A DNA stretch of 64,000 nucleotides. Origin: Tribonema minus (Eukaryota > Sar > Xanthophyceae > Tribonematales > Tribonemataceae). The notes under the pieces were generated by a model. The model did not search any database. It saw only the letters and a program-made list of their open reading frames with translations, and had not been told where the DNA came from. The DNA lies in contig JAFCMP010000212.1 of NCBI GenBank assembly GCA_017506865.1, positions 310,001 to 374,000 of the forward strand. The letters run 5' to 3'. Positions 47,101 to 62,658 of this stretch are shown here, piece after piece. The translations under genes were made by a program, and so were the position numbers. The number at the start of each line of letters is the position of its first letter. Positions within the stretch are counted from its first letter, which is position 1.

Positions 47101-48312
47101 TAGAAGTATGGCAACAACGTACGTAATAGCATAATAGGTGCATGCGATCAATTGAAACATTATGGTGGGGAGGCTGCTACGGATGTGCCTTCACATGCTC
47201 CGCGGAGTGCCTAACCAACCGAACTGTGATGATGCTTGCGCACCGTTCTCATTGCAGCTTCAAGAGTAATATGCGCATTGCTGTCTCTCATCTCTTGACA
47301 AGTCAATTTGTGTTACTGAAGGTTGATGACATTACATTATGTTTCTTTGGCCTATTGCACAGACTCAAGCTTGACCTTCTCACTCAGTGTTGTCACGTGT
47401 CCTGGACGTAAGTACGTACGCGTTATTACGTCATTAGCTCGGATGGTACATACTTACGGTCATGACGGCTTAGGGTTTGACCTAAGTAGGGTTAAGGGGT
47501 TTAGGACTTGGCACCAAGTAGGGCTAGGAGGTTTAGGGTTTGGCCTAGCTAGAGTTTGAGGCAGTCGGCCCGAAAAGTTCTGCCGACGACAAGGGTGGCG
47601 GGGCTTGCGTGCGTGGCTGCTGTATTGCACTCTGGCGAGGGGCATCATGCCCAGGACTGTCACAGCGGCTAACTTTAAGGTCAACTCATGGAAGCTGTGT
47701 ACAACGAGTGTTGCAGCTGCTGGCAGTCAGGCTCGTTGGACGAGTGTTGCTGCAGCTGGCGATCAGGCTTGTGCCCGGCGTGTTTTCTTGCAATATGCCT
47801 GCGAATGGCATCTGCGTGGCAGTGCATACATGACATCATGGCACTGTGTACCCATACACTCATGGTAGTGCTGGTAGTCACATTTGCATGCATCGACCTG
47901 AGCATGGCAGCCATGCAGTACTTTTTGATGGAATTTAGCATGCTCTGTTCAATGCGCCCTGGAGCATTCTAACCCTATCCTTAGTCAGGGTCAGGGCTAG
48001 GTTTAGGATATTGCTGCAATTAGGGTTTGTCGTCATTAGCCGTCATTACCCAGAGCAGAATCCTGCATACTTGCGTCGTTACGCGTACTTACGTCGCTAC
48101 CCGTACTTACGCCATTCACAACACTGTTCTCACTACTACATGCTGACAGGCTAGCCAAACACCCAGCTTCGCGAGTGGCGATTTTGCGGCAACAGCTCAG
48201 GCAGCAACTAGCTAAGGTGGCTGAATTGTATGCCGCAGTGTATTTCATGGTGGCTTCAAAGACACGGCTGGAGGAGCACAACAAGCGGGTGGCCGAGTCG
48301 AATGGCGTGTAC
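40282..48312 (+). CDS. Plavaka-type transposase, multi-exon, interrupted at 3' end
   Basis: Spliced model: 40282-41153, 41231-41325, 41423-41479, 41775-42496, 42687-42827, 43472-44771, 45348-45583, 46082-46249, 46703-46869, (47258-47407 optional), 48150-48312. All introns are GT-AG and every junction is in phase, about 1,307-1,357 codons without a stop. Order: C2H2 finger; LNWAEWFLKHHGTT; the core RWWAAAEAR, PIYITLGNYRHKDTRR, YHACWNIILEQ; NSHAPCRVCL; an NLS-like repeat block; FWSARTLLP, PPERMHQMELGIL; GRVKAQEWASAVLQLLVVL; IPKWHLFVH and GGWWEQAHI; ILRQQLRQQL. This collinear pattern matches fungal/algal Plavaka transposases (DDE, CACTA/KDZ-related). After the last donor (48,313) gypsy sequence begins, so the final exons are displaced. 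KDZ is the nearest alternative. Confidence 0.7.
41231..41325 (+). CDS. Plavaka exon 2
   Basis: Acceptor cctccag|G. Encodes MQLVENLQQLQEHLNWAEWF and LKHHGTTQAAA, matching the conserved Trp-containing stretch after the finger. Donor AG|gtgagc, phase 1. In the unspliced frame a stop would appear at 41,293-41,295. Confidence 0.55.
41423..41479 (+). CDS. Plavaka exon 3 (57 nt)
   Basis: Acceptor ctgcag|CA, donor CAG|gtacct, phase 1 to 1. Encodes AVAVQRVFFKVSLWDIACS. A small exon placed because both phases fit; less certain than its neighbours. Confidence 0.4.
41775..42496 (+). CDS. Plavaka exon 4: transposase core
   Basis: Acceptor atatcag|AG, donor CAG|gtactg, phase 1 to 0. Holds the most recognisable Plavaka blocks: NEARWWAAAEARVRDEL, ALQLLTDNTHLDRLGKN, KPIYITLGNYRHKDTRRLHS, QVLAYLPGL and RRLYHACWNIILEQ. 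The T-D-N and GN-type acidic/polar positions are where the first catalytic Asp of the DDE core is expected. Confidence 0.75.
42687..42827 (+). CDS. Plavaka exon 5
   Basis: Acceptor ttgacag|GTG, donor CAG|gtgcgt, phase 0 to 0, 47 codons. Encodes GGGIGIHLPCGIDES and QPTRFIPVLMPIVQ, equivalent to the conserved G(V)xxxCxDGxxRRxxPxLAxYxxDxPE region. Confidence 0.6.
42961..42987. repeat. AT-rich palindrome in a Plavaka intron
   Basis: catatgt, a (TA)n core, acatatg. Probably a simple (TA)n expansion. Confidence 0.5.
43472..44771 (+). CDS. Plavaka exon 6 with NLS-like minisatellite
   Basis: Acceptor cgtgcag|GAC, donor ATG|gtaagt, phase 0 to 1. Begins DTEEANIICLTRGSYNSHAP and CRVCLVTA (equivalent to the C-x2-C after the D-Y-P-E-Q block), then about 900 nt of tandem repeats, then LQENAFWSARTLLPED, the conserved FW...LP before the TPD-x-LHQ motif. 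The repeats appear to be an expansion inside an otherwise standard exon. Confidence 0.6.
43835..44605 (+). repeat. 126-bp in-frame minisatellite, about six units
   Basis: The anchor gctaaaagagcc recurs at 43,841 (as gttaaaag), 43,976, 44,099, 44,225, 44,351 and 44,477: steps of 135, 123, 126, 126 and 126, all multiples of three. Each unit encodes a basic APRAKRARHGAAAP block followed by an acidic/Ala-rich ALEAAAQGAEAGGSG block. Confidence 0.9.
45348..45583 (+). CDS. Plavaka exon 7: LHQ-type motif
   Basis: Acceptor gctcag|CA completes the split codon from exon 6; donor CAG|gtgatt, phase 0. Encodes MTPPERMHQMELGILARIP, ERINTRLKLLDP and LGRLGRVKAQ, equivalent to the TPDxLHQ...G and later GR(E/L)KxxEW blocks. 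Confidence 0.7.
46082..46249 (+). CDS. Plavaka exon 8
   Basis: Acceptor ggacag|GAA, donor AAG|gtactg, phase 0 to 0, 56 codons. EWASAVLQLLVVLDDS joins directly to the GRVKAQ of exon 7, as in the family; continues to CMYNSLCMWGWLRRPG. Confidence 0.7.
46520..46600. repeat. Degenerate telomere-like tract
   Basis: Interleaved ccctaa / ttaggg-like units (ctagggttggg, gggttaccctaggg, taccctaaccctaa) in an intron of the transposase gene. Similar scattered units lie at 47,470-47,550 and 47,970-48,030. Confidence 0.5.
46703..46869 (+). CDS. Plavaka exon 9
   Basis: Acceptor gtgcag|GTC, donor CAT|gtaagt, ends phase 2. VVPHFMRSYKIAFAEV, AIPKWHLFVHIAYFVTWYG and GGWWEQAHI match the P-K-x-H...Y/H...G...FE-x-x-H block, whose final Glu (here WEQAH) is a catalytic candidate. 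Confidence 0.7.
47258..47407 (+). CDS. Possible Plavaka exon 10 (optional)
   Basis: Acceptor attgcag|C and donor GAC|gtaagt are good and both phases fit (2 to 2), encoding FKSNMRIAVSHLLTSQ and on. Skipping it is also in phase, and the family alignment prefers skipping at least part of it. Confidence 0.35.
48150..48312 (+). CDS. Plavaka exon 11, last one before the gypsy junction
   Basis: Acceptor ctgacag|G, donor TAC|gtaagg, ends phase 0. LAKHPASRVAILRQQLRQQL and AAVYFMVASKTRLEEHNKR match the family's post-catalytic helical region. The gypsy minus-strand frame runs into the same bases (48,256-48,312), so the exact junction is ambiguous by about 50 bp. Confidence 0.55.
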
Positions 48313-50382
48313 GTAAGGATTCGCCATCGCTGGGCCTGGTAATTGATCATGCCCGAGTGCTGGCTTCACCAGGTACGTATCACTGCCTGCCACGCGCCTC
48401 TCCACCACGTATGGGCCAAACCATCGCTCTGCAGTCAACTTAGGGCTACGCCCCTTGCGCCGCAAGAAATGGTATACCCACACTTTGGATCCCACAGCAA
48501 ACCGCCGTTGTACCGCCTCCGGAGACCCCGCAGCCTGATCCCGCAATTGCTGTTGTTCTTGCAGGAAGACCCTGACAAGTTCATGCGAGGCCTGTAAGTC
48601 CTCCTCCAGCAACTCCATGTACTCTGCTACATCCCTCCAGCGCGAAGGCAACACGTTCCGCTGGTGTTTTAGCGCTGCCTCAAATGGTAACACTGCCTCT
48701 CGACCATAGAGGAGTCGGAAGGGGCTGACGCCGAAAGTCAAGTTGAGTGCTGTGCGGTGTGAGAAGAGGACCAAAGGTAGCCGCTCGTCCCAGTCACGCT
48801 GTCCACTGTCGGCAATCATGCTCAAGAGGGCCACTAACGACCCATTGGCTCGCTCCGTTAAGCCATTGCACTGTGGATGATATGGGCTTGAGCATCGCCG
48901 TGAAACTCCCATCAGACGGGTCACCTCTCGCAGCAGCGTACTGCGAAATTCTGCCCCGTTGTCAGATAGGAGAATGCATGGAGCCCCGTGTCGCGCAATG
49001 ACTTCTTGTACGAGGAGCCGTGCTACTGTCGGCGCCGTATGGTCAGATATTGCAAACGCCTCCACCCATCTAGTCAGGTAGTCCGTGAAGACAACTATGT
49101 ATTTGTTGCCTCGATTGGAAACTGGGAAAGGCCCAACAACATCCACCCCCACCAAGTCAAACGGCCCTCGGAGTTCCTCCCTGCCAAAACCGCGCACTGG
49201 TACTCGGAGTCCGCTTTGCTGTCGGAGCTTCCGCGCCAAGCACGTAGGGCACTTCAGCACGTGCTCTGCGACCGCAGCATACATGCCGACCCAGTAGAAA
49301 CGCTGGGCAATCTTGCCATATGTGCGATCGAAGCCGCAATGGCCTCCGCCAACTGGGTCGTCGTGTGCTCCACTCAGGACCTGAGGGACCAACACTGCCG
49401 GTAACACCAACCTGTCCTCCTCAGGTACCCGCCTGCCGCGTCGTGCCGCAATATAAAGCCGCCCTGCTAGCACATAGTAGCCAGCCCACTTGGCAGCATA
49501 TACCTCCTTGAGCTGCTGTTCCGAGAGGTCAGCGCTCACCACTCCGCCCTCCAAATGTGCCATTATTGCCCCTAGGAACGGGTCGGCGCGCTGAGCTGCT
49601 GACACATCGTCGCTCCCGGGTAACTTCGCCCTGCGACGTCCCACCAAGACCTGTGCGCCACATAGTGCCACGCCACATTGGAAGCACCCCACCGCGTCTG
49701 CAGCGAGGCCCCGCCTGGTCAGACAGACGCACCCCCCTGAAACCACCGTCCTGCCCGCGGCGCCCTGTGGCTGCGCCTTTGCCTCCGGTGCCGTGTCCTG
49801 CCAGTGTCCTCCAACCAGGCGCGACAAAGCGTCAGCATTGGCGTTTCTGTGCCCAGGCCTGTACGCAATTGTCATGGCGTACTCGTGCAGCACTGTGACA
49901 TAACGTTCCTGCCGTTTAGTGCGTATGTCACTGGTGGGATTGAGCAGGTACTTCAGTGCGGCGTGATCCGTCTCCAGCACAAACGGACGCCCGTTGTGCA
50001 ACAAAGATCTGAAGTGTAGAACTGCTTCCACCGCTGCCAGCGCTTCCCGGTCGTACACGGAGTAGTTGCGCTCCGCCTTGTTGAGAGTACGGCTGTAGTA
50101 AGCAAGCGGCTGTTCGGCATGACCACGTCGTTGTGATAGCACCGCCCCCAGTCCCACATCACTGGCGTCGGTCTGGAGCACCAACTGCGTCACGCCCTTT
50201 CTGATGCCCTCGTAATCAGGGTGAGCCAGTAGAGGGGCTGACCGTAGAGCGTCCTTCAGCATGGACCAGGCTGCAACTACCTCGTCTGTGAGCTCGAAGC
50301 TGGCATCCTTCCGCAACAAAGCCGTGATGGGCTCTGCTATGTCCGAATAGTGCGGAATGTACTCGCGATAGTACGATGCCAT
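48256..50382 (-). CDS. Gypsy pol, C-terminal part: RNase H and integrase
   Basis: 708 codons open. RNase H (residues about 45-195) has its four acidic positions: QTDASDVGLGAVL, DREALAAVEAVLHF, ETDHAALKYLL and HRNANADALSRL. Integrase: zinc-binding H-H-C-C (GGGHCGFDRT ... CPTCLARK), core Asp in VGVDVVGPF, Asp in LLSDNGAEF and Glu in LTERANGSL, so the D-D-35-E triad is complete. A GPY-type C-terminal module follows (KLTAERWFGPYVVERR). The frame starts before 50,382: RNLAEARSYLQ at about 50,415 is the RT connection, joined by a one-base frame change. The last 20-30 residues overlap the Plavaka exon on the other strand. Confidence 0.85.
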   Translation of the reverse strand: MASYYREYIPHYSDIAEPITALLRKDASFELTDEVVAAWSMLKDALRSAPLLAHPDYEGIRKGVTQLVLQTDASDVGLGAVLSQRRGHAEQPLAYYSRTLNKAERNYSVYDREALAAVEAVLHFRSLLHNGRPFVLETDHAALKYLLNPTSDIRTKRQERYVTVLHEYAMTIAYRPGHRNANADALSRLVGGHWQDTAPEAKAQPQGAAGRTVVSGGCVCLTRRGLAADAVGCFQCGVALCGAQVLVGRRRAKLPGSDDVSAAQRADPFLGAIMAHLEGGVVSADLSEQQLKEVYAAKWAGYYVLAGRLYIAARRGRRVPEEDRLVLPAVLVPQVLSGAHDDPVGGGHCGFDRTYGKIAQRFYWVGMYAAVAEHVLKCPTCLARKLRQQSGLRVPVRGFGREELRGPFDLVGVDVVGPFPVSNRGNKYIVVFTDYLTRWVEAFAISDHTAPTVARLLVQEVIARHGAPCILLSDNGAEFRSTLLREVTRLMGVSRRCSSPYHPQCNGLTERANGSLVALLSMIADSGQRDWDERLPLVLFSHRTALNLTFGVSPFRLLYGREAVLPFEAALKHQRNVLPSRWRDVAEYMELLEEDLQASHELVRVFLQEQQQLRDQAAGSPEAVQRRFAVGSKVWVYHFLRRKGRSPKLTAERWFGPYVVERRVAGSDTYLVKPALGHDQLPGPAMANPYVHAIRLGHPLVVLLQPCL

Positions 50383-51092
50383 CTGCAGGTATGACCTTGC
50401 TTCCGCCAGATTGCGGGCGGCTCCAGTTTCTCAATCGCCGCCACCTTGGCCAGGTCCACCTCCCGACCACCGCCGTGGACTATGTGCCCCAAAAACTTCA
50501 CCCGAAGTTGAGCAAAGTGGCACTTGGTCGGTTTGAGCACCACTCCTGCCTGTGCTAGCCTCGTGAAGACCCGCTCCACGTGAACCAGGTGCTCGCTAAA
50601 TGTGCGTGAGAAAATGAGCACGTCGTCGATGTAGACCAGCGCGTATACCCACAGAGCGTCGTGGCCGACCGCTAGTTCCATCATACGCTGGAATGTGGCT
50701 GGCATACGCATGAGCCCCATGGTCCCCACCTTCCACTGAAACTGGCCCCAACGAGTCTGGAACGCTGTGATCGGCCGTGACTCTGCGTCGAGCTCAATCT
50801 GCCAAAACCCATCCTGTGCGTCTGCGGCGGAAAAGTAGACAGCGCCGTCAAGCGCGTGGTGCATCTCGTCCGTGCGCGGCAACGGGTAAGCGTCCAACCC
50901 GTCACCCCTCTCCATGACTGCTTTGTTGACTGCGCGTAGGTCCTGTACCACCCGTAGTCGGCCGTCTGGCTTGGGCACTAGTAGCAGTGGAGAATTCCAA
51001 GGTGATGATGCTGGTTCCATGACCCCCATCCGCAAGAGCCGGTCAACCTCTTTCCAGAGAGTTTCCAACTCCAGGACTGAGTATCGTCGCAT
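50337..51092 (-). CDS. Gypsy reverse transcriptase
   Basis: Begins right after an in-frame TGA (51,102-51,104) that separates it from the upstream linker; the ATG at 51,092 is internal to the original frame. Motifs: VMEPASSPWNSPLLLVPK, GRLRVVQDLRAVNK, YPLPRTDE, FSAADAQDGFWQIELD, ITAFQTRWGQFQWKV, the catalytic YIDD (about 50,625-50,637; first catalytic Asp in SAADAQDG) and VKFLGHIVHGG. The frame is lost after KLEPP at about 50,412, where one missing C switches reading to the RNase H frame. The domain itself is otherwise unbroken. Confidence 0.85.
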   Translation of the reverse strand: MRRYSVLELETLWKEVDRLLRMGVMEPASSPWNSPLLLVPKPDGRLRVVQDLRAVNKAVMERGDGLDAYPLPRTDEMHHALDGAVYFSAADAQDGFWQIELDAESRPITAFQTRWGQFQWKVGTMGLMRMPATFQRMMELAVGHDALWVYALVYIDDVLIFSRTFSEHLVHVERVFTRLAQAGVVLKPTKCHFAQLRVKFLGHIVHGGGREVDLAKVAAIEKLEPPAIWRKQGHTCRWHRTIASTFRTIRT

Positions 51093-51101
51093 CTTGGCCC
51101 T

Positions 51102-53222
51102 TCAAGGCGCAGAATCACCCACATTGATATGGTGTCGAACCAGGGGCGTTGGTCGAGGCAGCTTGCCATCAAAACTGAACGCTCCAACCTGCGCAAGCCG
51201 CAAAAGCACCAGGTCGAGCTCCACCTGCTCATCGTCGGTCAAGTGGGGCGTCCGTTCTCGTGTGAAACAGGCGAGCACGGCTATCTCCTCTGTTGTAGGT
51301 GGTGGTGTACTCACGCCAGTCTTAAGGTGTTCACGCAGCCGTTGCCAACGACCCTCCGTGCCATGCGGTAAAGTCGTAGGTTGCTCCTTTGCCGGAAGCG
51401 GATGTTGTCCTGGTGGCTCATTGATGTCTATAGCCGGTTGAGGTTCTGCCGCATTGCAGTCCTGCGCAAGAGAGGCAGTGTCGATTTGCACTCTCAAAAT
51501 CGATTTGACAGGCAACGTCGCTGTTGCTGCTGTTGCTTCTGAGGCCGTGGTACCTGAGTCACCCCCCCATACTTCAACATCCTCAGCCCATTTCACCTGC
51601 TTGCTCTCATTTTTCTGCACAGCAGGCAGTGTTGCGCTATACTCCCCCCCTGCACACGAAGCGTGTGCACAAGCGCAACCACTGGGCCGGGTGGGTGGGC
51701 GAAACTCATCCGGAGGTTCATTATCCTCCGCGGTGTCACTGGCACTGGAAGCAGAAGCATCAGTGACATCAATGTGTGGGATGTAAGGGCCGCCAACACT
51801 TTTCGAAGTGGGATGCGTGGTACAGCTGGGCGGCCCCGAGGTGCTGTGGTTCCAGTTGGATTCTGGGGTGAAATGGAACCGTTGTTGGTGTGCTGTAGTC
51901 TGCTGGTGTGCTGAAGTGGGTCGTGGTGTTGGTTGTTGTTGACGTGTGTGTCGATGACGGTGCCTATGCTCATCGTGTTGCTGCTGTTGTCGGTGTTTGC
52001 GATTGTTGTTGCGTGTATCTGACCGGTGCTGGCCGAAGCGTTGCTGGCGCCGCGTGTTCTCGTCCTTGCAAAAAGGGTGTAGCCATGCCACCACCGCCCC
52101 CTTGGGTATGATTGCATTGGCGCGAGAGAACAAGATTGGAACTGACACTGTAGAGGTAGGGCTGGCAGCGAAGTCGATTCCTGCGCCGGAAGCAGCCCCA
52201 AATTTGGCCAGCATAGTGTTGGAGCCCTCCACGAAAAACAGCCCTGAGGCAACCGCTCCTGCCCTGATCTTGAGTGTGCACGTAGCCCACCCAGCGTTCT
52301 TAACCGGGCCCTGTAAATCCGTGGCTGCCACAAGAGCGAACCGTTGGCGAGAGTAAGGCTGGTGTGCCATGAGCGGCACTTGATCAAAGGGGTGGACGCC
52401 GTCCATACCATCGGCAGGCGGTACGTCCTCGTTCAAGTCCACTCCCTTTATCTCTCCGCTGTTCAACAAATTGAGCTCTGCCTGCAGTAGTATTGGCAAT
52501 TGCGCGGTCGCCGTTGCTCCAAACGCCCATGCCACAGCTTGCGCCTTGCACTGTTGCAGTGTTGGCAGTGACGGCATCCGCATTTGGCATTTGGGTACCG
52601 CCGCCAAGCCGGCCGCCTCCACCGCATCTGCTACTCTGTCTGTGACTGACCCCCTCGCCGAACGGGCGCTTGAAGCCGCAAAGCTCGAAACTGAAGCAAC
52701 TGGATGTACGTCATCTGCCTCCGCCATGCCAGCTGTTGGACGCTTTTGTTGTGGTAGCTCGCAATTGGGCTCATCTGCCTCTCCGCCCAGCCCTAGAGGT
52801 GGGCAGTCCGCGTATATGCCATCTACCAGGCACACTCCCTGCATTGATACCTCCGTGGTCTGCAAGTCCTGTATTGGGCTGCCCAGATCTGGACGACGCC
52901 GTGCTAACTCAAGCAGCGCCGGCTGTGTAAATATGGCTTTCAGCACTGCTGCCCCCACTTGCGGCACCACCATGTCTGCCAAGCCCTGTGCCCAGGTTCG
53001 CTTAGTGGTGCCAACCGGCACTTTCAGGTACAGAGCACCGACCAGACGCATTTTCTGCGAAGGGGACAGAGTCGTGAAGTCATCCACTCCAACTTTGTCC
53101 GTAAGCCGTGGTGGCAGTCGGTGCTGTGGTTTGTTGCATGTAAACATGCGAGCCTGAGCACTGGGATACTTGCCAGCCGTCGGATAGACCTGCGGGCCTT
53201 CCTGCTGCGAGGTTGATTCCAC
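51102..53222 (-). CDS. Methyltransferase C-terminus (motifs IX-X) plus PR-RT type linker
   Basis: 706 codons; the first codon is GTG in open sequence, so this is not a true start. Residues about 35-65 (PRLTDKVGVDDFTTLSPSQK) fit methyltransferase motif IX, and about 80-105 (QGLADMVVPQVGAAVLKAIF) fit motif X (GNAVPP-like), the elements missing from the upstream frame. After a variable region, residues about 290-400 (RFALVAATDLQGPVKN, LFFVEGSNTMLAKFG, VVAWLHPFCKDE) resemble the beta-rich segment before RT in many gypsy polyproteins. A His/Gln-rich tract (HRHRHRHTRQQQ) follows. The end (LVRHHINVGDSAP) is the usual RT lead-in, and reading is in frame with RT through the TGA. Confidence 0.6.
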   Translation of the reverse strand: MESTSQQEGPQVYPTAGKYPSAQARMFTCNKPQHRLPPRLTDKVGVDDFTTLSPSQKMRLVGALYLKVPVGTTKRTWAQGLADMVVPQVGAAVLKAIFTQPALLELARRRPDLGSPIQDLQTTEVSMQGVCLVDGIYADCPPLGLGGEADEPNCELPQQKRPTAGMAEADDVHPVASVSSFAASSARSARGSVTDRVADAVEAAGLAAVPKCQMRMPSLPTLQQCKAQAVAWAFGATATAQLPILLQAELNLLNSGEIKGVDLNEDVPPADGMDGVHPFDQVPLMAHQPYSRQRFALVAATDLQGPVKNAGWATCTLKIRAGAVASGLFFVEGSNTMLAKFGAASGAGIDFAASPTSTVSVPILFSRANAIIPKGAVVAWLHPFCKDENTRRQQRFGQHRSDTRNNNRKHRQQQQHDEHRHRHRHTRQQQPTPRPTSAHQQTTAHQQRFHFTPESNWNHSTSGPPSCTTHPTSKSVGGPYIPHIDVTDASASSASDTAEDNEPPDEFRPPTRPSGCACAHASCAGGEYSATLPAVQKNESKQVKWAEDVEVWGGDSGTTASEATAATATLPVKSILRVQIDTASLAQDCNAAEPQPAIDINEPPGQHPLPAKEQPTTLPHGTEGRWQRLREHLKTGVSTPPPTTEEIAVLACFTRERTPHLTDDEQVELDLVLLRLAQVGAFSFDGKLPRPTPLVRHHINVGDSAP

Positions 53223-53313
53223 ACGCCTGTAGAACCTGTACGCAGCAAACCCTCAATGCTACACTGCTGATCTGGAGGCAGCCGTCCACTGAGGAGTTGC
53301 AGAGACATCTGTG

Positions 53314-55416
53314 CTAGGGCGTCACCACTTCAGTCCCACCCTGAGCCATGACTACTAGTACAAATAAGCGCCGCCGTTGGTATGGTGGCCCAAAGTCACT
53401 GGCGTTCAGCCGTAGGAAGCACAGCTGATACCCCCTTTCGCGTGCTAATGCGAAGGCCTCCTGTCCTCGAGTCATTGACTCAATAGACACAACATTTTCC
53501 AACACCACCAGTGGCATCTGCATTTGCGTCAGCTGATGCACCAGCAAGGGCGTGAGGGCTGCTCTGGTGCCCTCTCTACGCTCCCCTTTGTCTGCTCGTA
53601 CCAAGCGTGCTGGTGTGAAATCTGTACAAGGGGGCCCCGTTACTACCATGCCAGCGCCGGAGGCCGCCAGTTCCTCCCACATGTCAGAGGTGTACAGGTC
53701 TCTGGTGGAGAGCTCAGCACAAACACCTCGATTGGCATCGTAGACGGGCTTCGCTGCGGCGTTGCGGTCCATGGCGTACACTACACGCCCTCCTGCCATC
53801 TGTACGGCACGGCTGAACCCCCCAATGCCGGCACAGAGGTCTGCCACTTTTACCGCGTCCGGCCCAGGGTCCCCCATATCACCTGGCTGTTCCCAGTCCT
53901 GTAGTGGAGCCCAGCCAGGCTCGTGTATGACTGCGCCGTCTGACCCAAAGTATTGATACCACCCCCCGCGACGCCAATCACGCTTCGTAGTGGCGACCCC
54001 CACCTCAAAGATGGAACGCCGTTCCGGCAACTTCATGCCCAACAGGTTAGGCGGAATGTCTGCCACAGGCGTGCCAGAATCGGAGGAAGAGTGATCTGAC
54101 CCTTGGGCCGCGAAGCGATCAGCAGACGGCAGACCCTCTGGTAGCACTGTAGACGGAGCTGTTGGTACTTTGTCAGCGGCCATTTTCCGTCCACTGTTAT
54201 CCCCCATAGTGCCAGCGGTGGTGGCATCTGTCTGTGCAGCGTTTCGGCATGCCATAGTCACCTTGCGACGCCGTCGCTCCGTTGATGACATCCTGCGTCG
54301 GTGTGGCACATACGACGAGCTGCCAGGTGTGTCCGATGAGGCTGGTTCCCTGGTGCGAGGCTGCCCCTGTTCAGACTGTTGCACCGCGCGGTGTATGCGC
54401 TGAATGGATCGGAGGCGCGTGCGAGTGAAGCGTCTCAAAAGCACTTTGTACAGTGCAGTGATGCGCTGACGTCGGCCTGCCCTAGGTATCTCCAGGGCAT
54501 GCTCTCGCAATAGAGCCTCCACCCAACGGCGTGCGTCAGCCCTCGCCACCGTTAACATGTTGTCTGCATCAGATTCTGGGAAGGCTGCCACCCCCCCATG
54601 ATCGGAGCTCATGTCCGCCCCATCCAAGGAACAGGTATTGGCAGCACGCACTTCTGTCAGCAGGCGCTCTACTTCTGCCCGTAACTCAATGGCCACCGGA
54701 CCCTCCTCACCAGATGAGAGCGGTTGAGCTTGAGACTGCTCCCCAGCAAAGCGCCGGCGAAGCAGCTCCCTTCGTGTGGCTGCGACCAAGCTGCGCATTC
54801 GCAAGTACAGCGGGCTCTGCCTATCCGCATGCTGCTCCAGGAAAGCCTCCGTCGTTTGCGATGCATTAGCCAACGCATCACGTGCAGCATCGAGTAGCTT
54901 CTGGTGCTTGATGGCCATCTCGTCCAACTTTGGATCTATGCAAGGCCACTCCGCTGTACGCTTCTCCTCAACAGATGCCAACCGTGCAGCCTCACGGAGC
55001 GCCGCCATACGTCGACGCCGACGCAGAGCCACCCGCTGTTGATAGGCCTGCACGCGCTCGCCAGACAGCGTAGAACTGCTATCTGAGGACTCCTCCGAGT
55101 TATCCCCCATGTTCTCCTCCATCATCTGGTCCACCTCATCACCAAAGCCCTCCGGTAGGGACGCCAAAGGCTCAAAGAACCCGTGCCCACCATGTATGTT
55201 GACAATCGCCTCCGGTTGCGATGCATGACGTATGGGGCTGTCAATGTCGGCTGCATGTGATTGCACGCAACGAGCTGTTGCGTGCAAGGTGCTGTGCACC
55301 GTCTGGGGCCTGGCAGGCTCCACTCGTTCCGCGGCCCGTATGCCCTTTATCACATCACGACTGTCAGGATCCAGTACTGAGTCATTGAGAACCCAGTCCT
55401 CCGCCGACAGTGGCAT
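53314..55416 (-). CDS. Cytosine-C5 DNA methyltransferase domain of the gypsy polyprotein
   Basis: 700 codons. Catalytic-domain motifs near the C-terminus: motif I DLCAGIGGFSRA (about residue 523, SAM binding), an acidic AMDRN end of strand 2, motif IV TGPPCTDFTPAR with the catalytic Cys (about 595), motif VI VVLENVVSIES with the ENV Glu (about 639), and motif VIII YQRRRLFVLVV (about 681). These are the diagnostic residues of DNA C5 methyltransferases, and all are intact. The first 500 residues are charged and helical without a known domain. The frame ends at a TAG before the target-recognition and motif IX-X part, which continues in the next frames. It overlaps the Gag-protease frame by 67 nt; an 11-bp duplication explains the break. 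Likely action: methylation of element or host DNA in the nucleus; specificity unknown. Confidence 0.8.
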   Translation of the reverse strand: MPLSAEDWVLNDSVLDPDSRDVIKGIRAAERVEPARPQTVHSTLHATARCVQSHAADIDSPIRHASQPEAIVNIHGGHGFFEPLASLPEGFGDEVDQMMEENMGDNSEESSDSSSTLSGERVQAYQQRVALRRRRRMAALREAARLASVEEKRTAEWPCIDPKLDEMAIKHQKLLDAARDALANASQTTEAFLEQHADRQSPLYLRMRSLVAATRRELLRRRFAGEQSQAQPLSSGEEGPVAIELRAEVERLLTEVRAANTCSLDGADMSSDHGGVAAFPESDADNMLTVARADARRWVEALLREHALEIPRAGRRQRITALYKVLLRRFTRTRLRSIQRIHRAVQQSEQGQPRTREPASSDTPGSSSYVPHRRRMSSTERRRRKVTMACRNAAQTDATTAGTMGDNSGRKMAADKVPTAPSTVLPEGLPSADRFAAQGSDHSSSDSGTPVADIPPNLLGMKLPERRSIFEVGVATTKRDWRRGGWYQYFGSDGAVIHEPGWAPLQDWEQPGDMGDPGPDAVKVADLCAGIGGFSRAVQMAGGRVVYAMDRNAAAKPVYDANRGVCAELSTRDLYTSDMWEELAASGAGMVVTGPPCTDFTPARLVRADKGERREGTRAALTPLLVHQLTQMQMPLVVLENVVSIESMTRGQEAFALARERGYQLCFLRLNASDFGPPYQRRRLFVLVVMAQGGTEVVTP

Positions 55417-58400
55417 GGCTGTGTCATCTTGCCCTGACAGACTGCCATCGCTCTGAGCAGCTGATGCCCCAAGGTCGTTTTAAGGTCGTTTGACATTTCA
55501 ACATTGCTGGAGTTGCTGCCGCCCAGGTTGACGCTGTGCGCGTTTGAGCGGCTATCTGCCCTGCTTGTCACGAGACCATCATCCGGCTGGGAGGCCACTA
55601 ACCCCTGATTGCCTGCGGCCTCATTACTATCACCACCCATCTCTGCGCCCTGAGCGCGGGCTGCGTATTCATTACTGTCACCACCATCAGAGCTCTGAAC
55701 GCGGGCAGCGCTGTCACAGCGTTCACCACCTTCGGCGCCACAGCCGACCAAGCTGTTGTTCGTGAGCCCCGCGACGTCGTCGCAGCAATCAGTCAGCGCA
55801 TTCTCACGTGTCAAAGTCGAGGAGGCGTCCCTGTTGCCTGCCCGCGCCTCGTCTTTGATCACACCCTTTACCTCTGGCGTAGAGGCGGTACTGTCAGCTG
55901 CAGCGGTGGCACCGGCCGGCGTGTCAGCGATGGTAGGTGCAGCAATGTTCCCAGCAGTGTTCCTCCCCCTTACACACGAAGCCACCGGCGAGTGTGTCGC
56001 ACACTGCGGGCGGGAGGGTGGGCTGCACGTATGGAGAGATGCACCTGTAAATGAGCCCGCAGCAAGAGCACGGTGGGCGTCCGGAGAGCCGCAGCTAACG
56101 ATGTCGGCAAGCGGGATGCCCTCCAGAAGCACCTCCTTGCCAGCTAGCACAGCAGCCACCACGAAGCGTACGTTGGCGGCGTTCTGAGCCATAGAAAGCT
56201 GTACTGATCCTGTGCTGTCCAAGGATGTCAGCCTCACTGCTGCTGACTGCAGAGATGCGAATAAGTCAGCAGGTGTGGCATCCGCGTGCTCGACCCTGGC
56301 TGCTGCACTCATGTTGCGACCCATAACTGCGTTTGAGTGTTGCCTGCTGCCATTGCCACCGCCCGTGGCCCCAGGAGCGCTATTGTTCCTGATGTCATCA
56401 TAGAAACGATCGACATCAGTAGAATCACGCACCGGGTATTCAAAGTCCTTGCCATCAACGCTGACAGTGAATGACTTGTAACCCGGGTTGGGCCTCCAGT
56501 CATGGGCGCGCAGTAAGTCCAGACCCAGCAGAAGGAGCTGAACCAGCACTCGAACCAGGTGGAAGTCGACCGGCACCACTATGTGCTCGCCAGCCCCACC
56601 CTCACTGCCCCATGAGAAGCGCATCTGGACCACTGCATCAATTGGTGAAATGCTGCCATTCACTCCTCTCACGGCTGCATATGTTGACTGGCGTTGCTCA
56701 CCTAGGAGCTGAGTGGCGCGCTGGTCATTTCCCCGCTGACGCAGCAGTTTGAGAATGAGCATGAACCCGCGAGTGGCCAGGAACGTTGCCAGTGCGCCAG
56801 GGTCCAACAGTCCGGGCGTGGGAGTACCTTCGATGGTGACAAAGGCCTTCAGTAGCTGCACCCCATCCGGGCGCTGCACGTTGTTGACGGCTAGTTGTGC
56901 CGCCCCTGCTGCCTGTTGCATGTGCTGTGGTTGGGTCCTACAAACCGGGGGTACCAAAGCAGCATTGCACGCCGCAATTAGGTGCCTAGCCTCCAGCTGC
57001 GACACTGAGACTCCACGGACCTCGTCTGTGCAAGCAAGACAGCATTCCACGACATCCCCGAACTCAAAGGTGTCGAAGGCATCGCCTAAGGACACGAGCT
57101 CGTCAACCATAGCAGCAGTGACGGCCACCATGGTTACTGGGTTTGCTGCGGCCGATACCTCCCCTGCGCCTGTCTGTCGGGCGTCAGGCATGTCTGCTAC
57201 ATGCACTGGCACTTGGCCTTGGCCTGGTCTTGAGCCAAACTGTTGGTAGGGCCGGTTGTTGAATCTCCCAGCGCCGCCGCGACCCCTGCCTGTCATGCCA
57301 CCGTTGCTGGGCCCCTGGTTCCACGCTGTGGGGCCCCCACCAGGCACATACTGACCACCGCGACCGCCGCCACCAACTCCTGCGCCCCACTGCTGTCGCT
57401 GTTGAGGCACCATGTACTGCTGAGCTTGTTGCATTTGCTGTTGCATCTGTTGCTGTTGTTGCAACTGCTGCATCATCGACACCAATGTGTTGATTCTGCT
57501 GTGCACATCCGCCAGTTGCTGGTTGGCTTGGTTGGTTTGACGCTGCACGTCCTGTCCGTTTGGGCCAGGCGGAGCACCAGGTGTTGCATTGCTGCCCATG
57601 CCAACATTTGCATCAGTTGCTGAGCTGGGGGAGCTGAGGGTATCCGCCGCGTTACCACCCAGTATGTCGCGGCGGCGCCCTTTTCCCTGCTGCCGGCCCT
57701 CGGTCTCCGCCACCAACAGGCTCTCCCAGCTTTCGAGGTAATTCTCGTTCACAAATTCCTCCTCTTTGTCCTCAAGGAGGGTGCCCAGCGCATCAGTGTC
57801 TAGATCCACGCTCTGGGTGCGCTGCAATATTTTCTCCTTGGCACGTACCACGTTGGTAAGGATGCCCACACGCCGTGAGAACGCTGATGAGCCTGCATCC
57901 GTGGCACTCAGGCTGAGAATGTCACACAGGAGTCGCATAAAACCCGCCATGCGCACTGCTGGTTCTGCGCGCTCAATGCTTGAAAGTGAACGTTTGTGCA
58001 GCACCGTCAGCTCCTCCACGAATGCACGAATACGCGTGTCCGGTGCTAGCCGCAAACGGCGGCATGCATCCACTGCCCGTGCGCACCGTTGGTCCTCCGG
58101 GAAGCGTTTCACAAAGTCCCTTTTGAGCTGCTCCCACAACTCCTCCGTCACCTGAATGGCTGTAAGTTCAGCATCCTCTCGTCCAGGTTTCTCCATGTAG
58201 CTGGTTAGCCAGCCAGTGGCGATACGATCCAGCCCCTTTGTGAACACCGTGTATAGGTGCGACGGTGCCGGGGGACCCCCTTTTGTGGTGTTGTACGTGA
58301 AATCGCGTACCAGCGCCAGGTACTTGACGGCGTCATCTGTGACGTCTGTGCCCACCGTCGCCCCACTCGGCAATTGTAGGTTGCCATCACTGCGAAACAG

Positions 58401-59477
58401 GGGCACATCCCCCTGCACTTTGGAGGACAGCGTGACCACACCTGGCCCAGCGCTACCCACAACACGTCGAGGCAAGGGAATGTTGGACGAGGTCTTCTCC
58501 TCCCTCGCCTGTGCCATAGTCTTGACGAGCTCCTGCCCCATAATTTGACGTGCTGCCCGTTCAGCATCGCGGACGTCCTTGACCTTGTCTTCCAGAGCAA
58601 CTTGCACCATGTCCACCTTCTGAGTGAGGCCTGCGATTGCCTCAGACTGACTAGCATGCTGTTCCTTCCAGTAAGCCAACTCTCTCTCCTGATCAGTAAT
58701 TGCTTGCTGATTGGCAACTGCCCGCTGAGATACACCACCGACCTGTATGGTAGTGCGAGGATCCGTGCCAATATCGCCCACCAAGTCCACGGTGTCCTTC
58801 GTTGCCGCCACTCTGTTGTCCAGTCCGCGTGGGGCAGGTGGTGGCATGTCAGCCTGAAGTCCCATAGCTCCACCAGTGGCAACCCTGCGCTCAGTCGGCC
58901 TCACATCAAAAGCCCAACCTCCACCAACCACATTGCCCAAGCCCCGCTTTTGCTCTTCACGGCGCCAAAGGCTATTGAGCTGATCCCTGTCGAGGCGAAC
59001 TCCCTTCTCCTGGTAGTCAGCTAGCGTCCGGGTGCAGAGTGCGCCATAGTCTCCTTTCACCGTAGGCACTGCCGGCTTGCTGATGGACGTGTGTACGGGA
59101 CTCACACCCAGCATGGCTGTCGTCTCACTAGCGGCAGCCGCCTGCTGCATGGGCCGAGATGACACCCTCTGAGATGACGACCGTGCACGATCTCCCGTGG
59201 TCATGTCTCGAATGCTTTGAGGGTGCACGTTGTCTGATGTTGCTATGACACGGCTGTGGCGTTCAGCCTCAACTCGGCGCGCCGGGCCGCTGCTGCTGTG
59301 CTCATGCCCCATTGGCAGCCTAGTCGAGACCTGCTGTGCAAACCTGTCTGGCCCATCCTGTCGACGAAGCCCACCAGTACTCCTCACTGGCCCACGAGCT
59401 GCATCACGTCGGCTTTGCTCCTCAACAGCATCCACATCTGTCCTTCCCACTTTGACTTTTCCAGTGCATGCAGTCAT
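55350..59477 (-). CDS. Gypsy Gag and retropepsin-like protease
   Basis: The frame is open from 59,567 (a TTG); the first ATG is 59,475-59,477 (MTACTGKVKVG), which overlaps the stop of the preceding frame as ATGA. Counting from 59,567: coiled coil about 290-360; retrotransposon Gag domain about 430-560 (EELWEQLKRDFVKRFPEDQ, AFVEELTVLHKR); Gln-rich about 695-715; RGG-type Gly/Arg-rich about 730-780; protease about 900-1040, with LLDPGALATFLA in place of the usual DTGA/DSGA and LLLGLDLLRAHDW as the second flap-side motif. DPG is odd for a retropepsin and may reduce activity or mark a variant family. The last 31 residues after the 11-bp duplication (55,471-55,492) are out-of-frame reading. Confidence 0.75.
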   Translation of the reverse strand: MTACTGKVKVGRTDVDAVEEQSRRDAARGPVRSTGGLRRQDGPDRFAQQVSTRLPMGHEHSSSGPARRVEAERHSRVIATSDNVHPQSIRDMTTGDRARSSSQRVSSRPMQQAAAASETTAMLGVSPVHTSISKPAVPTVKGDYGALCTRTLADYQEKGVRLDRDQLNSLWRREEQKRGLGNVVGGGWAFDVRPTERRVATGGAMGLQADMPPPAPRGLDNRVAATKDTVDLVGDIGTDPRTTIQVGGVSQRAVANQQAITDQERELAYWKEQHASQSEAIAGLTQKVDMVQVALEDKVKDVRDAERAARQIMGQELVKTMAQAREEKTSSNIPLPRRVVGSAGPGVVTLSSKVQGDVPLFRSDGNLQLPSGATVGTDVTDDAVKYLALVRDFTYNTTKGGPPAPSHLYTVFTKGLDRIATGWLTSYMEKPGREDAELTAIQVTEELWEQLKRDFVKRFPEDQRCARAVDACRRLRLAPDTRIRAFVEELTVLHKRSLSSIERAEPAVRMAGFMRLLCDILSLSATDAGSSAFSRRVGILTNVVRAKEKILQRTQSVDLDTDALGTLLEDKEEEFVNENYLESWESLLVAETEGRQQGKGRRRDILGGNAADTLSSPSSATDANVGMGSNATPGAPPGPNGQDVQRQTNQANQQLADVHSRINTLVSMMQQLQQQQQMQQQMQQAQQYMVPQQRQQWGAGVGGGGRGGQYVPGGGPTAWNQGPSNGGMTGRGRGGAGRFNNRPYQQFGSRPGQGQVPVHVADMPDARQTGAGEVSAAANPVTMVAVTAAMVDELVSLGDAFDTFEFGDVVECCLACTDEVRGVSVSQLEARHLIAACNAALVPPVCRTQPQHMQQAAGAAQLAVNNVQRPDGVQLLKAFVTIEGTPTPGLLDPGALATFLATRGFMLILKLLRQRGNDQRATQLLGEQRQSTYAAVRGVNGSISPIDAVVQMRFSWGSEGGAGEHIVVPVDFHLVRVLVQLLLLGLDLLRAHDWRPNPGYKSFTVSVDGKDFEYPVRDSTDVDRFYDDIRNNSAPGATGGGNGSRQHSNAVMGRNMSAAARVEHADATPADLFASLQSAAVRLTSLDSTGSVQLSMAQNAANVRFVVAAVLAGKEVLLEGIPLADIVSCGSPDAHRALAAGSFTGASLHTCSPPSRPQCATHSPVASCVRGRNTAGNIAAPTIADTPAGATAAADSTASTPEVKGVIKDEARAGNRDASSTLTRENALTDCCDDVAGLTNNSLVGCGAEGGERCDSAARVQSSDGGDSNEYAARAQGAEMGGDSNEAAGNQGLVASQPDDGLVTSRADSRSNAHSVNLGGSNSSNVEMSNDLKTTLGHQLLRAMAVCQGKMTQPCHCRRRTGFSMTQYWILTVVM
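55471..55492 (-). repeat. 11-bp tandem duplication that splits Gag-PR from methyltransferase
   Basis: aaggtcgtttt (55,471-55,481) is followed by aaggtcgtttg (55,482-55,492). Deleting one unit joins the Gag-protease frame (SNDL) to the methyltransferase frame (GASAAQSDGSLSG...) without a stop. Confidence 0.85.
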
Positions 59478-59563
59478 TCCTGCTCCTTCATCTTGGCCCT
59501 GTCCTGCGCGCGAAGTCGCTCCTGCTCGTCCAATTTGGCCTGAAGCTCCAATGCGCGCATGCT

Positions 59564-60061
59564 TCAAGTCGTGCTGACCGCACTGGAACTGTCATAGGAA
59601 TCTGCGCCGCTTTTCAGCGGCGAAGGCGGTGGGATGCGCAGCTGCAGACGGGCAACAGTGGCACTGCTGGTTGGGCTAGGATTCCTGAGCCTCAGCTCCG
59701 AAGCCACAGAGCCGGCACGAGATGAGTGCTGCTGAGGTGTTGCCCTTGAACCGAGCCTCTGGCTGTTTGCCGCTTGATGACTGGCAGAGCTGGACGAGCT
59801 TCGAGAACCCAAACCAGTATCACTCGCGCTAGACGCCTTGGTCGGGTGAGGCCGGTCCAGGCTGCTGGGGCAAGAGGTATACACCAGCGGCAGAGCCCAC
59901 TCCTCGACGTCTTTCGGAGCTATGACATAACAGTCCATCAGCCCCTTCTTGTTGAAGAGCGTGCAGAAGGAGGTCACACTCCGACCAAGCGGTTGAAGCA
60001 CATGCCACGGCAGCTCGAGCGGAGGCTGCCTGATGCCATTGATGACAGGGCGCACCAGCAC
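59564..60061 (-). CDS. Gypsy polyprotein N-terminal region, piece 3
   Basis: Begins inside a G8 tract (plus-strand C8, 60,061-60,068), where the frame changes from the previous piece. Encodes VLVRPVINGIRQPPLELPW, LFNKKGLMDCYVIAPKDVEE, then a Ser-rich tail. It ends at TGA 59,564-59,566; reading beyond it in the same frame is a clear coiled coil (MRALELQAKLDEQERLRAQD) up to the ATGA overlap with the Gag frame at 59,474-59,477. Unknown function; it may be a matrix-like or accessory region. Confidence 0.5.
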   Translation of the reverse strand: MLVRPVINGIRQPPLELPWHVLQPLGRSVTSFCTLFNKKGLMDCYVIAPKDVEEWALPLVYTSCPSSLDRPHPTKASSASDTGLGSRSSSSSASHQAANSQRLGSRATPQQHSSRAGSVASELRLRNPSPTSSATVARLQLRIPPPSPLKSGADSYDSSSAVSTT

Positions 60062-60681
60062 CCCCCCCTGCGCCTGTGCGTGTGTCCTTCCAGACGTAAC
60101 TGAGTGTCAAATGACTCCTCGACCTCCTCCAGCATTGTGATCACGCCGTTTGTCACCCCTGCAATTTCACCGCAAGCCAGCGAACGAGTGTTGCGCGGTA
60201 GGCAGCACGGGGCTAGCCGCCAAGCCGGTTCGACAGTGACCTTTCCGACCCGAGGGTGCCACACGCGTACCTTGTCAGTCGCTTTTAAGCACGGGTCGGG
60301 GACCGTCTGTGGGTAGTCCACCACTTGGACGATGGAAGGTGAACTCTTTGTCGCCTTGCTGCAACTGTTGTAGCACAGCACCACTTCGCCCAGTTGTGGA
60401 GCCCACTGCCCCACCTCGCCGGCGGCCCAAGCTTCCTTCCACCCTGCAGCCTCAAAGCTTCGGTGTGTGCGAATCCCATCGTCAAACCCAGCGCCACCTC
60501 CACGGTTGAGAGTAGTCAACCCTGTCTCCGGGTTGATGCCAGTCACTGTCCAAACGACGCGCTCGTAGGCCGACGAAGATACTTCATCATCATCAGTAAG
60601 AGACCTGAATCGGTCCAGATCCTCCCTCAGCTCCCAAGTTGTCACCAAACAGATTTTGGTGATACTCTCTGGCGCCACCTA
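59974..60681 (-). CDS. Gypsy polyprotein N-terminal region, piece 2
   Basis: Open from the codon after an in-frame TAG (60,679-60,681). Encodes ITKICLVTTWELREDLDRF, YERVVWTVTGINPETGLTTL, EVVLCYNSC and DKVRVWHPRVGKVTVEPAW. True coding stops at the G8 tract near 60,062; the residues after RRRGG are shifted. The fold looks beta-rich, but I recognise no family. Confidence 0.5.
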
Positions 60682-61034
60682 TCTATAGTATGGCATTTCA
60701 GCTGGATACTCATTCTCCAGCACACCGGCACCATACGAGCAACGGTACTGCCAAAGCAGCTCTGCGATGGCATTAGGCTGACGCGCCGCTGCCATAGCCG
60801 ACGTCCAACGTGGTAGTACCAAAGAATCATCTGCATCTGCTAAGTCAGCTAGCCCGCACCGCCACCCTGAGTTGCACTAGCAGTTGCGAGAACAGCCTGT
60901 GCCACTGTCGCTGCATCAGTGACCAAACCGACGCCCGATGCGTCGGGTGTGCCAAGGCTCTTATTTTCTTCCAACTTTTCTTGTGTGCGTTCATCTTGCA
61001 CACATTTGTCCGTGCCATCACCAGCCGAATCCAT
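60682..61034 (-). CDS. Gypsy polyprotein start, piece 1
   Basis: ATG at 61,032-61,034 (MDSAGDGTDKCVQDERTQEK) is the most upstream plausible start. The frame stops at about 60,849 (GGGAG then TAG), and a shift of frame continues through LADADDSLVLPRWTSAMAAA, IAELLWQYRCSYGAG and EYPAEMPYYR up to the in-frame TAG at 60,679. One frameshift and one nonsense codon therefore lie here. Confidence 0.45.
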
Positions 61035-62340: not shown

Positions 62341-62392
62341 GTGTTAGGGTTAAGGGTTAGGGTTAGGGTTAGGGTTAGGGTAAGGTTAGTGA
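62341..62392. repeat. Interstitial TTAGGG telomere-like array
   Basis: About seven consecutive ttaggg-type units just inside the right inverted repeat of the Plavaka element. It is internal, with unique sequence on both sides, so it is not a chromosome end. Confidence 0.85.
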
Positions 62393-62414
62393 TTGTTATC
62401 CAGATGACATGCAT

Positions 62415-62658
62415 GCAGCATTGCTCAGCGCGGCCCGCTGAGCATTCACTCCAAATAACTCTCGACCTCAACTGGGAGTGTGTTGAACATTGCACAACGA
62501 GTGTGTTGAACATTGCACAACCTCAACTTCAACACTTGTAAAATTTCAACTTAAACTTGAAGTTCAACTTTAACTTCAGCTGTTGCCACAGTGCTCAACA
62601 TGCATTTTTGCACGCTTCAGCCTACCGCTGCCACATAACCCCCCTGCATGGTGCTCTT
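62415..62658 (-). repeat. Right terminal inverted repeat of the Plavaka element
   Basis: Inverted partner of 39,352-39,556. It includes gcagcattgctcagcgc (62,415-62,431, exact), aacttgaagttcaactttaa tracts, and two copies of cctaccgctgccaca (62,621 and 62,683). Confidence 0.65.

What the first reader, a model, noticed from the sequence alone, without database searches (positions are those of the whole stretch)
48313..61034. A Ty3/gypsy retrotransposon that encodes its own cytosine-C5 DNA methyltransferase
Seen: Gag, retropepsin-like protease, then a domain with DLCAGIGGFSRA, GPPC, ENV and QRRRLF in the order and spacing of C5 methyltransferases, then RT (YIDD), RNase H and integrase (D-D-E), all on the minus strand. 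Known: C5 methyltransferases captured by retrotransposons have been reported in dinoflagellates and Klebsormidium. Inference: in this alga an element brings its own methylating enzyme, placed between protease and RT, perhaps to methylate its own copies and soften host responses or to mark integration sites.
Basis: partly seen in the sequence, partly recalled or inferred. Interest (0 to 1): 0.93.

Follow-up and report, generated by a model that had tools for sequence, protein, structure and literature searches.

The report
Gypsy retrotransposons carrying DNA methyltransferase domains
In the genome of a yellow-green alga, a whole group of retrovirus-like jumping genes carries a DNA-methylating enzyme domain inside its replication polyprotein, and some recently multiplied families keep the domain although its active site is changed or gone, which leaves its purpose an open question.

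Summary
Window 48,291-62,635 (minus) is a decayed, 3'-truncated Ty3/gypsy copy with a C5-cytosine methyltransferase (PF00145, E 1.7e-18) between protease and RT. An LTR-complete relative (C312, 15.3 kb, 330-bp LTRs, 4-bp target duplication) has the domain in one open frame, motifs I to X. Chance juxtaposition is excluded: in this genome (matched to the xanthophyte Tribonema minus) two capped searches give 217 methyltransferase places, and RT follows at a fixed distance, family by family. The domains form one clade against the (mostly bacterial) references used, show no DNMT3 affinity, and sit at three places in the polyprotein. One family with 27 near-identical copies lacks the catalytic-cysteine loop, yet the fold is predicted intact (pLDDT 88.6) and dN/dS against its sister is 0.16; two other families changed the Pro before the catalytic Cys. 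Gypsy elements with a C5 methyltransferase are known (KnitGypsy-Dnmt3), so this is a new variant: new host group, non-DNMT3 domain, conserved catalytically impaired versions. Best mechanism: methylation of new cDNA in families with an intact centre, a non-catalytic role elsewhere. No methylation or activity data exist.

The parts
62243..62635 (-). 5' LTR of the window copy (matched pieces 62385-62635 and 62243-62345)
   Evidence: 83% and 97% to the 330-bp LTR of the C312 copy
59567..60678 (-). 5' open frames (59977-60678 and 59567-60106), no family hit; colinear with the C312 copy
55353..59591 (-). Gag-like and protease open frame, 1413 aa; retropepsin-like LLDPGA at 56778-56810
   Evidence: no Pfam hit, so Gag and PR rest on motif and order
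53317..55479 (-). Open frame (721 aa) with the N-terminal half of the C5 methyltransferase: motif I 53806-53862, IV (GPPC) 53605-53652, VI (ENV) 53476-53511, VIII (QRRR) 53359-53409
   Evidence: PF00145 E 1.7e-18; positions
52929..53192 (-). Target-recognition part and motifs IX/X of the methyltransferase, in the next open frame (51105-53252)
   Evidence: continuous with the first half in the C312 copy
52071..52244 (-). Protease-RT spacer segment (GLFFVEGSNTM ... PKGAVVAWLHPF), after the methyltransferase
   Evidence: naming by motif, recalled
50340..51101 (-). Reverse transcriptase, YIDD at 50610-50645
   Evidence: RVT_1 2e-29
48291..50430 (-). RT end, RNase H and integrase (H2C2 49228-49347; D 49123-49161; D 48940-48972; E 48835-48882); homology to other copies stops at 48291 (3' truncation)

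Best explanation
The window holds a decayed copy of an LTR retrotransposon family (A) that belongs to a large clade of Ty3/gypsy elements of Tribonema minus in which a C5-methyltransferase domain is a standing module of the Gag-Pol polyprotein. Shown: the domain, its linkage to RT at fixed spacing, three positions, purifying selection in most pairs, one clade against the references used, and families with a changed or missing catalytic motif. Inferred: the domain works inside the particle, free or as part of Pol, and in families with an intact PC/ENV/RxR centre it methylates cytosine (most likely CG) on the new double-stranded cDNA before or during integration, giving copies that arrive premarked and can be held by the host's maintenance system (DNMT5 is reported for T. 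minus). Families that lost the catalytic motif use the retained fold for binding nucleic acid or as a Pol part.
For: Domain and element. Linkage: an MTase place within 6 kb upstream of 35 of 79 group-I RT rows (79 of the 150 rows) and 98 of 150 group-II RT rows, with constant spacing per family (about 1957, 2116-2119, 2350, 2050 bases); 117 of 150 rows entered from the RVT_1 search have one within 7 kb. dN/dS of the domain is 0.12-0.39 in 10 of 13 pairs. PC, ENV and RxR are kept in 9 of 12 sampled domain types: A, C, C2, D, E, F, G, G2, H. Trees. A-copy pairs differ by C/T 1.5-2.2 times more often per CG site than per CHH site in 6 of 6 pairs, against 0.84-1.26 for transversions, which fits CG methylation of these copies by some enzyme. 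Precedent: isolated SymbioDIRS DNMT domains methylate CG de novo in yeast (PMC5890265, passages). Host: DNMT5, HELLS, CDCA7 in T. minus (PMC10538959, passages).
Against: No methylation, expression or activity data. CpG observed/expected of nine element stretches (0.71-0.96) is no lower than the rest of the window (0.82 overall, 0.66-1.01 in 4-kb pieces). The CG excess may come from host enzymes, and no non-element control for it was available. B, B' and J have an altered or missing motif IV, and B' has 27 near-identical copies, so methyl transfer by the own domain is not needed for spread. The remaining 3 of 13 dN/dS pairs: D 0.55 (0.37-0.87), C2-C2 1.0 on eight changes, A-A2 not computable for saturation. 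A and B share 65% of RT but only 24% of the MTase, not explained. In PMC5890265 the tested SymbioLINE domain did not methylate DNA in yeast.
Confidence: 0.5

Rival explanations
1. Non-catalytic use: the MTase fold is kept as a nucleic-acid-binding, base-flipping or structural module of Pol (or, like DRM3/DNMT3L, as a dead partner of active copies), and methyl transfer is secondary or lost.
For: B' family: the motif-IV loop is absent in the copy read (C33), and 27 places match that loop-less query at 98-100% without a break at the junction (where B copies split into two matches); 26 of 27 have no stop, frames up to 3455 aa. Its model has pLDDT 88.6 and matches DNMT2 and HhaI over 335-355 columns. 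B-B' dN/dS 0.16 (0.11-0.24), between the protease region (0.11) and the spacer (0.37) of the same pair. E-N of motif VI and both R of motif VIII are invariant in all 17 aligned rows. B has RC or HC and J has LC instead of PC.
Against: 9 of 12 sampled domain types keep PC, ENV and RxR, which a purely structural role would not demand. Part of the B-B' constraint may predate the loss; selection within B' could not be measured because its copies are nearly identical.
Confidence: 0.25
2. The domain methylates the element's RNA or a tRNA primer, DNMT2-like.
For: The C-family MTase finds only a DNMT2-type chain in PDB by sequence at E<=0.01 (E 0.007); the B' model's best Foldseek hit is DNMT2; de Mendoza et al. 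suggest RNA as a possible substrate for SymbioLINE.
Against: The A domain matches M.HaeIII/M.HhaI and the G domain DNMT1, ahead of DNMT2; the CG-biased C/T differences point to DNA.
Confidence: 0.1
3. It acts on the target: methylated or CG chromatin is bound so that integration is steered (as chromodomains do in chromoviruses; recalled).
For: Domain lies in the same polyprotein as integrase; predicted DNA-methyltransferase fold.
Against: No insertion-site survey was made; the domain is upstream of RT, not next to integrase.
Confidence: 0.1
4. Chance juxtaposition or neutral passenger.
For: The window copy is broken.
Against: Many copies with fixed spacing, single open frames with MTase, RT, RNase H and integrase in B and C, dN/dS well below 1 in 10 of 13 pairs.
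Confidence: 0.02

Closest known systems
KnitGypsy-Dnmt3 (Klebsormidium nitens; de Mendoza et al. 2018, PMC5890265)
   Same: LTR gypsy element with a C5 methyltransferase in Pol, several copies, purifying selection (passages)
   Different: There the domain is DNMT3-type and the repeat structure is described as that of a DIRS element; here plain direct LTRs with a 4-bp target duplication in the copy examined, no DNMT3 affinity, three positions, catalytically impaired families, stramenopile host
SymbioDIRS-Dnmt3 and SymbioLINE-Dnmt (Symbiodinium; same paper)
   Same: Retroelement-encoded C5 methyltransferases in hundreds of copies in an alga; SymbioLINE enzymes are an orphan clade
   Different: Tyrosine-recombinase DIRS or LINE elements, not integrase-bearing LTR elements; different hosts
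DRM3 / DNMT3L (recalled; DRM3 seen only in the listing, PMC2965745)
   Same: Catalytically dead C5-methyltransferase folds that are kept
   Different: Host genes that help an active enzyme; here a retroelement polyprotein domain, partner unknown
M.HhaI / Dcm-type prokaryotic C5 methyltransferases
   Same: Compact I-to-X arrangement; first in the PDB profile search and in the fold search of A
   Different: Stand-alone enzymes; 17-19% identity in the fold search; all dcm (TIGR00675) scores are below that model's cut-off

Membership tests
Ty3/gypsy LTR retrotransposon | RT - RNase H - integrase order with H2C2 and D-D-E | tested here: met
Ty3/gypsy LTR retrotransposon | Direct LTRs with TG...CA ends and short target duplication | tested here: met
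   C312 copy: 330-bp LTRs, 321/330 identical, 4-bp CATG duplication. The window copy itself lacks the 3' LTR; LTRs of families B to J were not looked for beyond a self-comparison of two 10-kb stretches that found none
Ty3/gypsy LTR retrotransposon | Primer binding site and polypurine tract | tested here: inconclusive
   G-rich tract before the 3' LTR and TGGTGACC after the 5' LTR in C312; not matched to a tRNA
C5-cytosine methyltransferase | Motifs I, IV (PC), VI (ENV), VIII (RxR), IX/X in order | tested here: met
   A family; fold. Not met at motif IV by B (RC/HC), J (LC) and B' (loop absent); B' stays just under the Pfam cut-off (21.9 of 22 bits)
C5-cytosine methyltransferase | Methyl transfer to cytosine C5 | not testable with these tools
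   no assay or methylation data
DNMT3 family (KnitGypsy-Dnmt3 membership) | Closest to DNMT3 | tested here: not met
   profile search of PDB: 53 hits at E<=1e-5, M.HhaI first, none named DNMT3A/3B (the profile holds 4 outside rows of 17, three of them bacterial-type). No DNMT3 sequence was in the trees
KnitGypsy-Dnmt3 | DIRS-like repeat structure | tested here: not met
   plain direct LTRs in C312

The most novel reading that the evidence does not exclude
In several recently multiplied gypsy families (B' at least, perhaps B and J) a captured DNA methyltransferase has become a conserved pseudo-enzyme: a non-catalytic part of Pol that binds the cDNA or helps active relatives in trans, so that the methyltransferase fold, not methylation, is what the elements select for.
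Probability: 0.45. Interest if true: 0.82.

Novelty: new variant of a known kind. Interest (0 to 1): 0.72.

Why it matters
Why retrotransposons carry methyltransferases, enzymes usually used to silence them, is unsettled. Here one genome offers a natural experiment: sister families with and without a normal catalytic motif, both multiplied, and the domain at three positions of the polyprotein. It would also place many potential de novo methyltransferases in an alga reported to have DNMT5 but not DNMT1 (PMC10538959, passages), so mobile elements could shape the host methylome.

Tried and rejected
Chance juxtaposition: rejected. DNMT3 origin as in Klebsormidium: not supported. Green-alga host: rejected; rbcL fragments in nuclear contigs are closest to red-type Rubisco chains (which PDB entries are red-type is recalled), and P0006, a T. 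minus protein, matches C540 at 100% over 250 and 99% over 226 residues, the second piece with two stops inside. Independent capture for each position: the trees put the gypsy domains together (14 of 24 rows, 99/99; 13 of 43 rows, 100/99), but the references are bacterial enzymes plus one DNMT1 fragment, branches are long, the 43-row output warns of long-branch joins, and in it group III is not resolved and group I has 90/56; a single capture is not proven, and the A/B mismatch (RT 65%, MTase 24%) leaves room for replacement. CpG depletion of elements: not found. 'RT families without MTase': two such families (C33, C117) were read and both carry a degenerate domain; other unpaired rows were not read. 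Relatives elsewhere: A query 2 distant hits, C polyprotein region none, G query 380 hits with P0004 nearest at 68%; E query in viral contigs none; a profile scan was not possible. The SSU rRNA search gave no answer and was not repeated; I used PF00016 instead. A tree with the host's own DNMTs, and transcription or methylation data, were not available.
Full report
Observation. The window's minus strand from 48,291 to 62,635 holds a Ty3/gypsy element copy. Open frames give a Gag-like region with a retropepsin-like LLDPGA, then a C5-methyltransferase, then RT, RNase H and integrase. PF00145 matches at E 1.7e-18, RVT_1 at 2e-29, RT_RNaseH at 8e-30, H2C2 at 2.6e-15, rve at 1.6e-14. Gag and protease have no profile hit and rest on motif and order. 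The methyltransferase is cut by a frame break after motif VIII, other frames are broken too, and the copy ends at 48,291 without a 3' LTR.

The family. A relative on contig C312 (327,197-342,513, 15,317 bases) has 330-bp LTRs identical at 321 of 330 positions, TG...CA ends and a 4-bp duplication CATG. Its methyltransferase lies in one open frame of 1,204 residues from motif I to X, though the rest of that copy is also broken. So family A is real but, in the copies read, old. Close copies of the domain (94-98% over the matched part) lie on C212, C312, C59, C176 and C216; a broken one (62-89% by piece) lies on C224 and a 65% relative on C212.

The genome. The assembly has 158.2 Mb in 554 contigs. 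A Tribonema minus protein (P0006) matches C540 at 100% over 250 residues and 99% over 226, and plastid rbcL fragments in nuclear contigs look red-type, so I take the host as T. minus (Xanthophyceae) or a very close strain.

How many. The 195-residue query printed 150 rows (4 second fragments of the same copies dropped) and PF00145 printed 123; together 217 distinct places, a lower bound because both lists are capped. Four of them (C223 twice, C181, C523) look like stand-alone ORFs, not elements. Pairing by coordinates with RT searches: 35 of 79 group-I rows (79 of 150 rows entered; the rows near 37% identity and a few fragments left out) and 98 of 150 group-II rows have a methyltransferase place within 6 kb upstream, with a fixed spacing in each family. 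Of 150 rows entered from the RVT_1 search (151 matches, 1,416 candidates), 117 have one within 7 kb. Unpaired rows are not proof of absence: two unpaired families that I read, C33 (B') and C117 (J), both carry a degenerate domain; the others were not read. Families B and C have methyltransferase, RT, RNase H and integrase in one open frame. Open frames around methyltransferase places reach 3,561 residues.

Three positions. By motif, protease precedes the domain in A, B, B' and H, and follows it in C, C2 and J. In A the protease-RT spacer follows the domain; in H it precedes it. For D, E, F and G the protease was not seen in the fetched part.

Relationships. In trees of 24 and 43 rows the gypsy domains are one side of a branch (99/99 and 100/99). 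In the 24-row tree groups I (95/91), II (93/94) and III (97/98) match the position and RT group; in the 43-row tree group I has 90/56, II 98/93, and III is left open. The two C223 enzymes group with a bacterial one. References were bacterial enzymes, M.HhaI, M.HaeIII and a DNMT1 fragment; no DNMT3, 5 or 6 sequence was in the trees, and the 43-row output warns of long branches meeting. The RT tree of six rows gives A+B, C+E+F and H. RT and domain identities agree in group II (C-E 65/50%, C-F 55/34%) but not for A-B (65/24%). A profile search of PDB (4 of its 17 rows are from outside this genome) lists HhaI first, then other Dcm types, DNMT1, DNMT2 and, by my recall of the entries, CMT and DNMT5 chains; none of the 53 hits is named DNMT3A or 3B.

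Impaired but kept. Family B has RC (or HC) in place of PC in motif IV, J has LC, and B' lacks the whole loop. That motif IV Cys is the catalytic residue is recalled. B' has 27 places at 98-100% over the domain with no break at the junction, 26 of them without a stop, in frames up to 3,455 residues; only the C33 copy was read. B' scores just under the Pfam cut-off (21.9 of 22 bits), J above it (46.7). AlphaFold models of A and B' reach pLDDT 88.9 and 88.6. Foldseek's best hits are M.HhaI for A (363 columns, TM-score 0.59, rmsd 10.0) and DNMT2 for B' (339 columns, 0.57, 10.7; S. pombe Dnmt2 0.62, 6.9); the high rmsd suggests a different angle of the two lobes. B-B' dN/dS is 0.16 (0.11-0.24), with 0.11 for the protease region and 0.37 for the spacer of the same pair. 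Other pairs: A 0.21-0.39 (six pairs, one interval reaching 1.33), C-C2 0.18, E 0.12, G-G2 0.19, D 0.55 (0.37-0.87), C2-C2 1.0 on eight changes, A-A2 saturated.

Mechanism. Families with an intact centre most likely methylate their cDNA at CG. Support: PC/ENV/RxR kept in 9 of 12 sampled domain types, selection, C/T differences between A copies 1.5-2.2 times more frequent per CG than per CHH site in 6 of 6 pairs (transversions 0.84-1.26), and activity of SymbioDIRS domains in yeast (PMC5890265, passages). Against: CpG observed/expected of the elements is like that of the rest of the window, the CG signal can be the host's, the SymbioLINE domain tested there was inactive on DNA, and B' spreads without the loop. 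T. minus is reported to have DNMT5, HELLS and CDCA7 and to be an exception among CDCA7 species in lacking DNMT1 (PMC10538959, passages), so premarked copies could be maintained; this link is inference.

Prior work. KnitGypsy-Dnmt3, SymbioDIRS-Dnmt3 and SymbioLINE-Dnmt are described in PMC5890265 (parts 1-2 of 7 and passages read). PMC6338049 (passages) cites it. PMC12344493 (passages) mentions retrotransposon DNMT3s and orphan DNMTs, and has no 'Tribonema' in its main text. PMC12477816 and PMC13236599 (passages) mention other things: a ParB/N-methyltransferase transposon of Ectocarpus and xanthophyte viral recombinases. No paper on such elements in Tribonema or other xanthophytes appeared in searches, which cover open-licence PMC papers only. 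Verdict: a new variant of a known kind.

Noticed in passing
G000 contigs C519, C529, C46, C57, C223, C537, C312 (LTR pairs): The family-A LTR has 40 scored matches (112 candidates); seven same-strand pairs lie about 10.1-10.7 kb apart with no A-type RT or MTase row of the capped lists between them, which looks like a non-autonomous element using the same LTR.
   Followed up: partly
L043-L045 (C223:937874, C223:702740, C181:39962): Stand-alone Dcm-like ORFs of 367-390 residues; the two from C223 group with a bacterial enzyme, not with the gypsy domains. Possibly bacterial or viral inserts, or host genes.
   Followed up: partly
L046 (C523:358815-359333): Open frame that looks DNMT2-like (SPPCQP; recalled motif, not tested).
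   Followed up: no
C212:374001-378000 (L031), just right of the window: An LTR (C212:377086-377412) and 5' end of another family-A copy in inverted orientation to the window copy.
   Followed up: partly
window 44004-44633: Tandem repeat with 126-base spacing, inside an open frame rich in alanine.
   Followed up: no
P0004 (456 aa, source 'jgi', contig of 75,354 bases): A G-type methyltransferase 68% identical to the one in this genome, so the group seems to exist elsewhere.
   Followed up: no
C312 copy, integrase region at C312:340019: C312 lacks a segment present in the window copy at 49322-49748 and in the second C212 copy; the C59 copy has a 715-base direct duplication nearby.
   Followed up: partly
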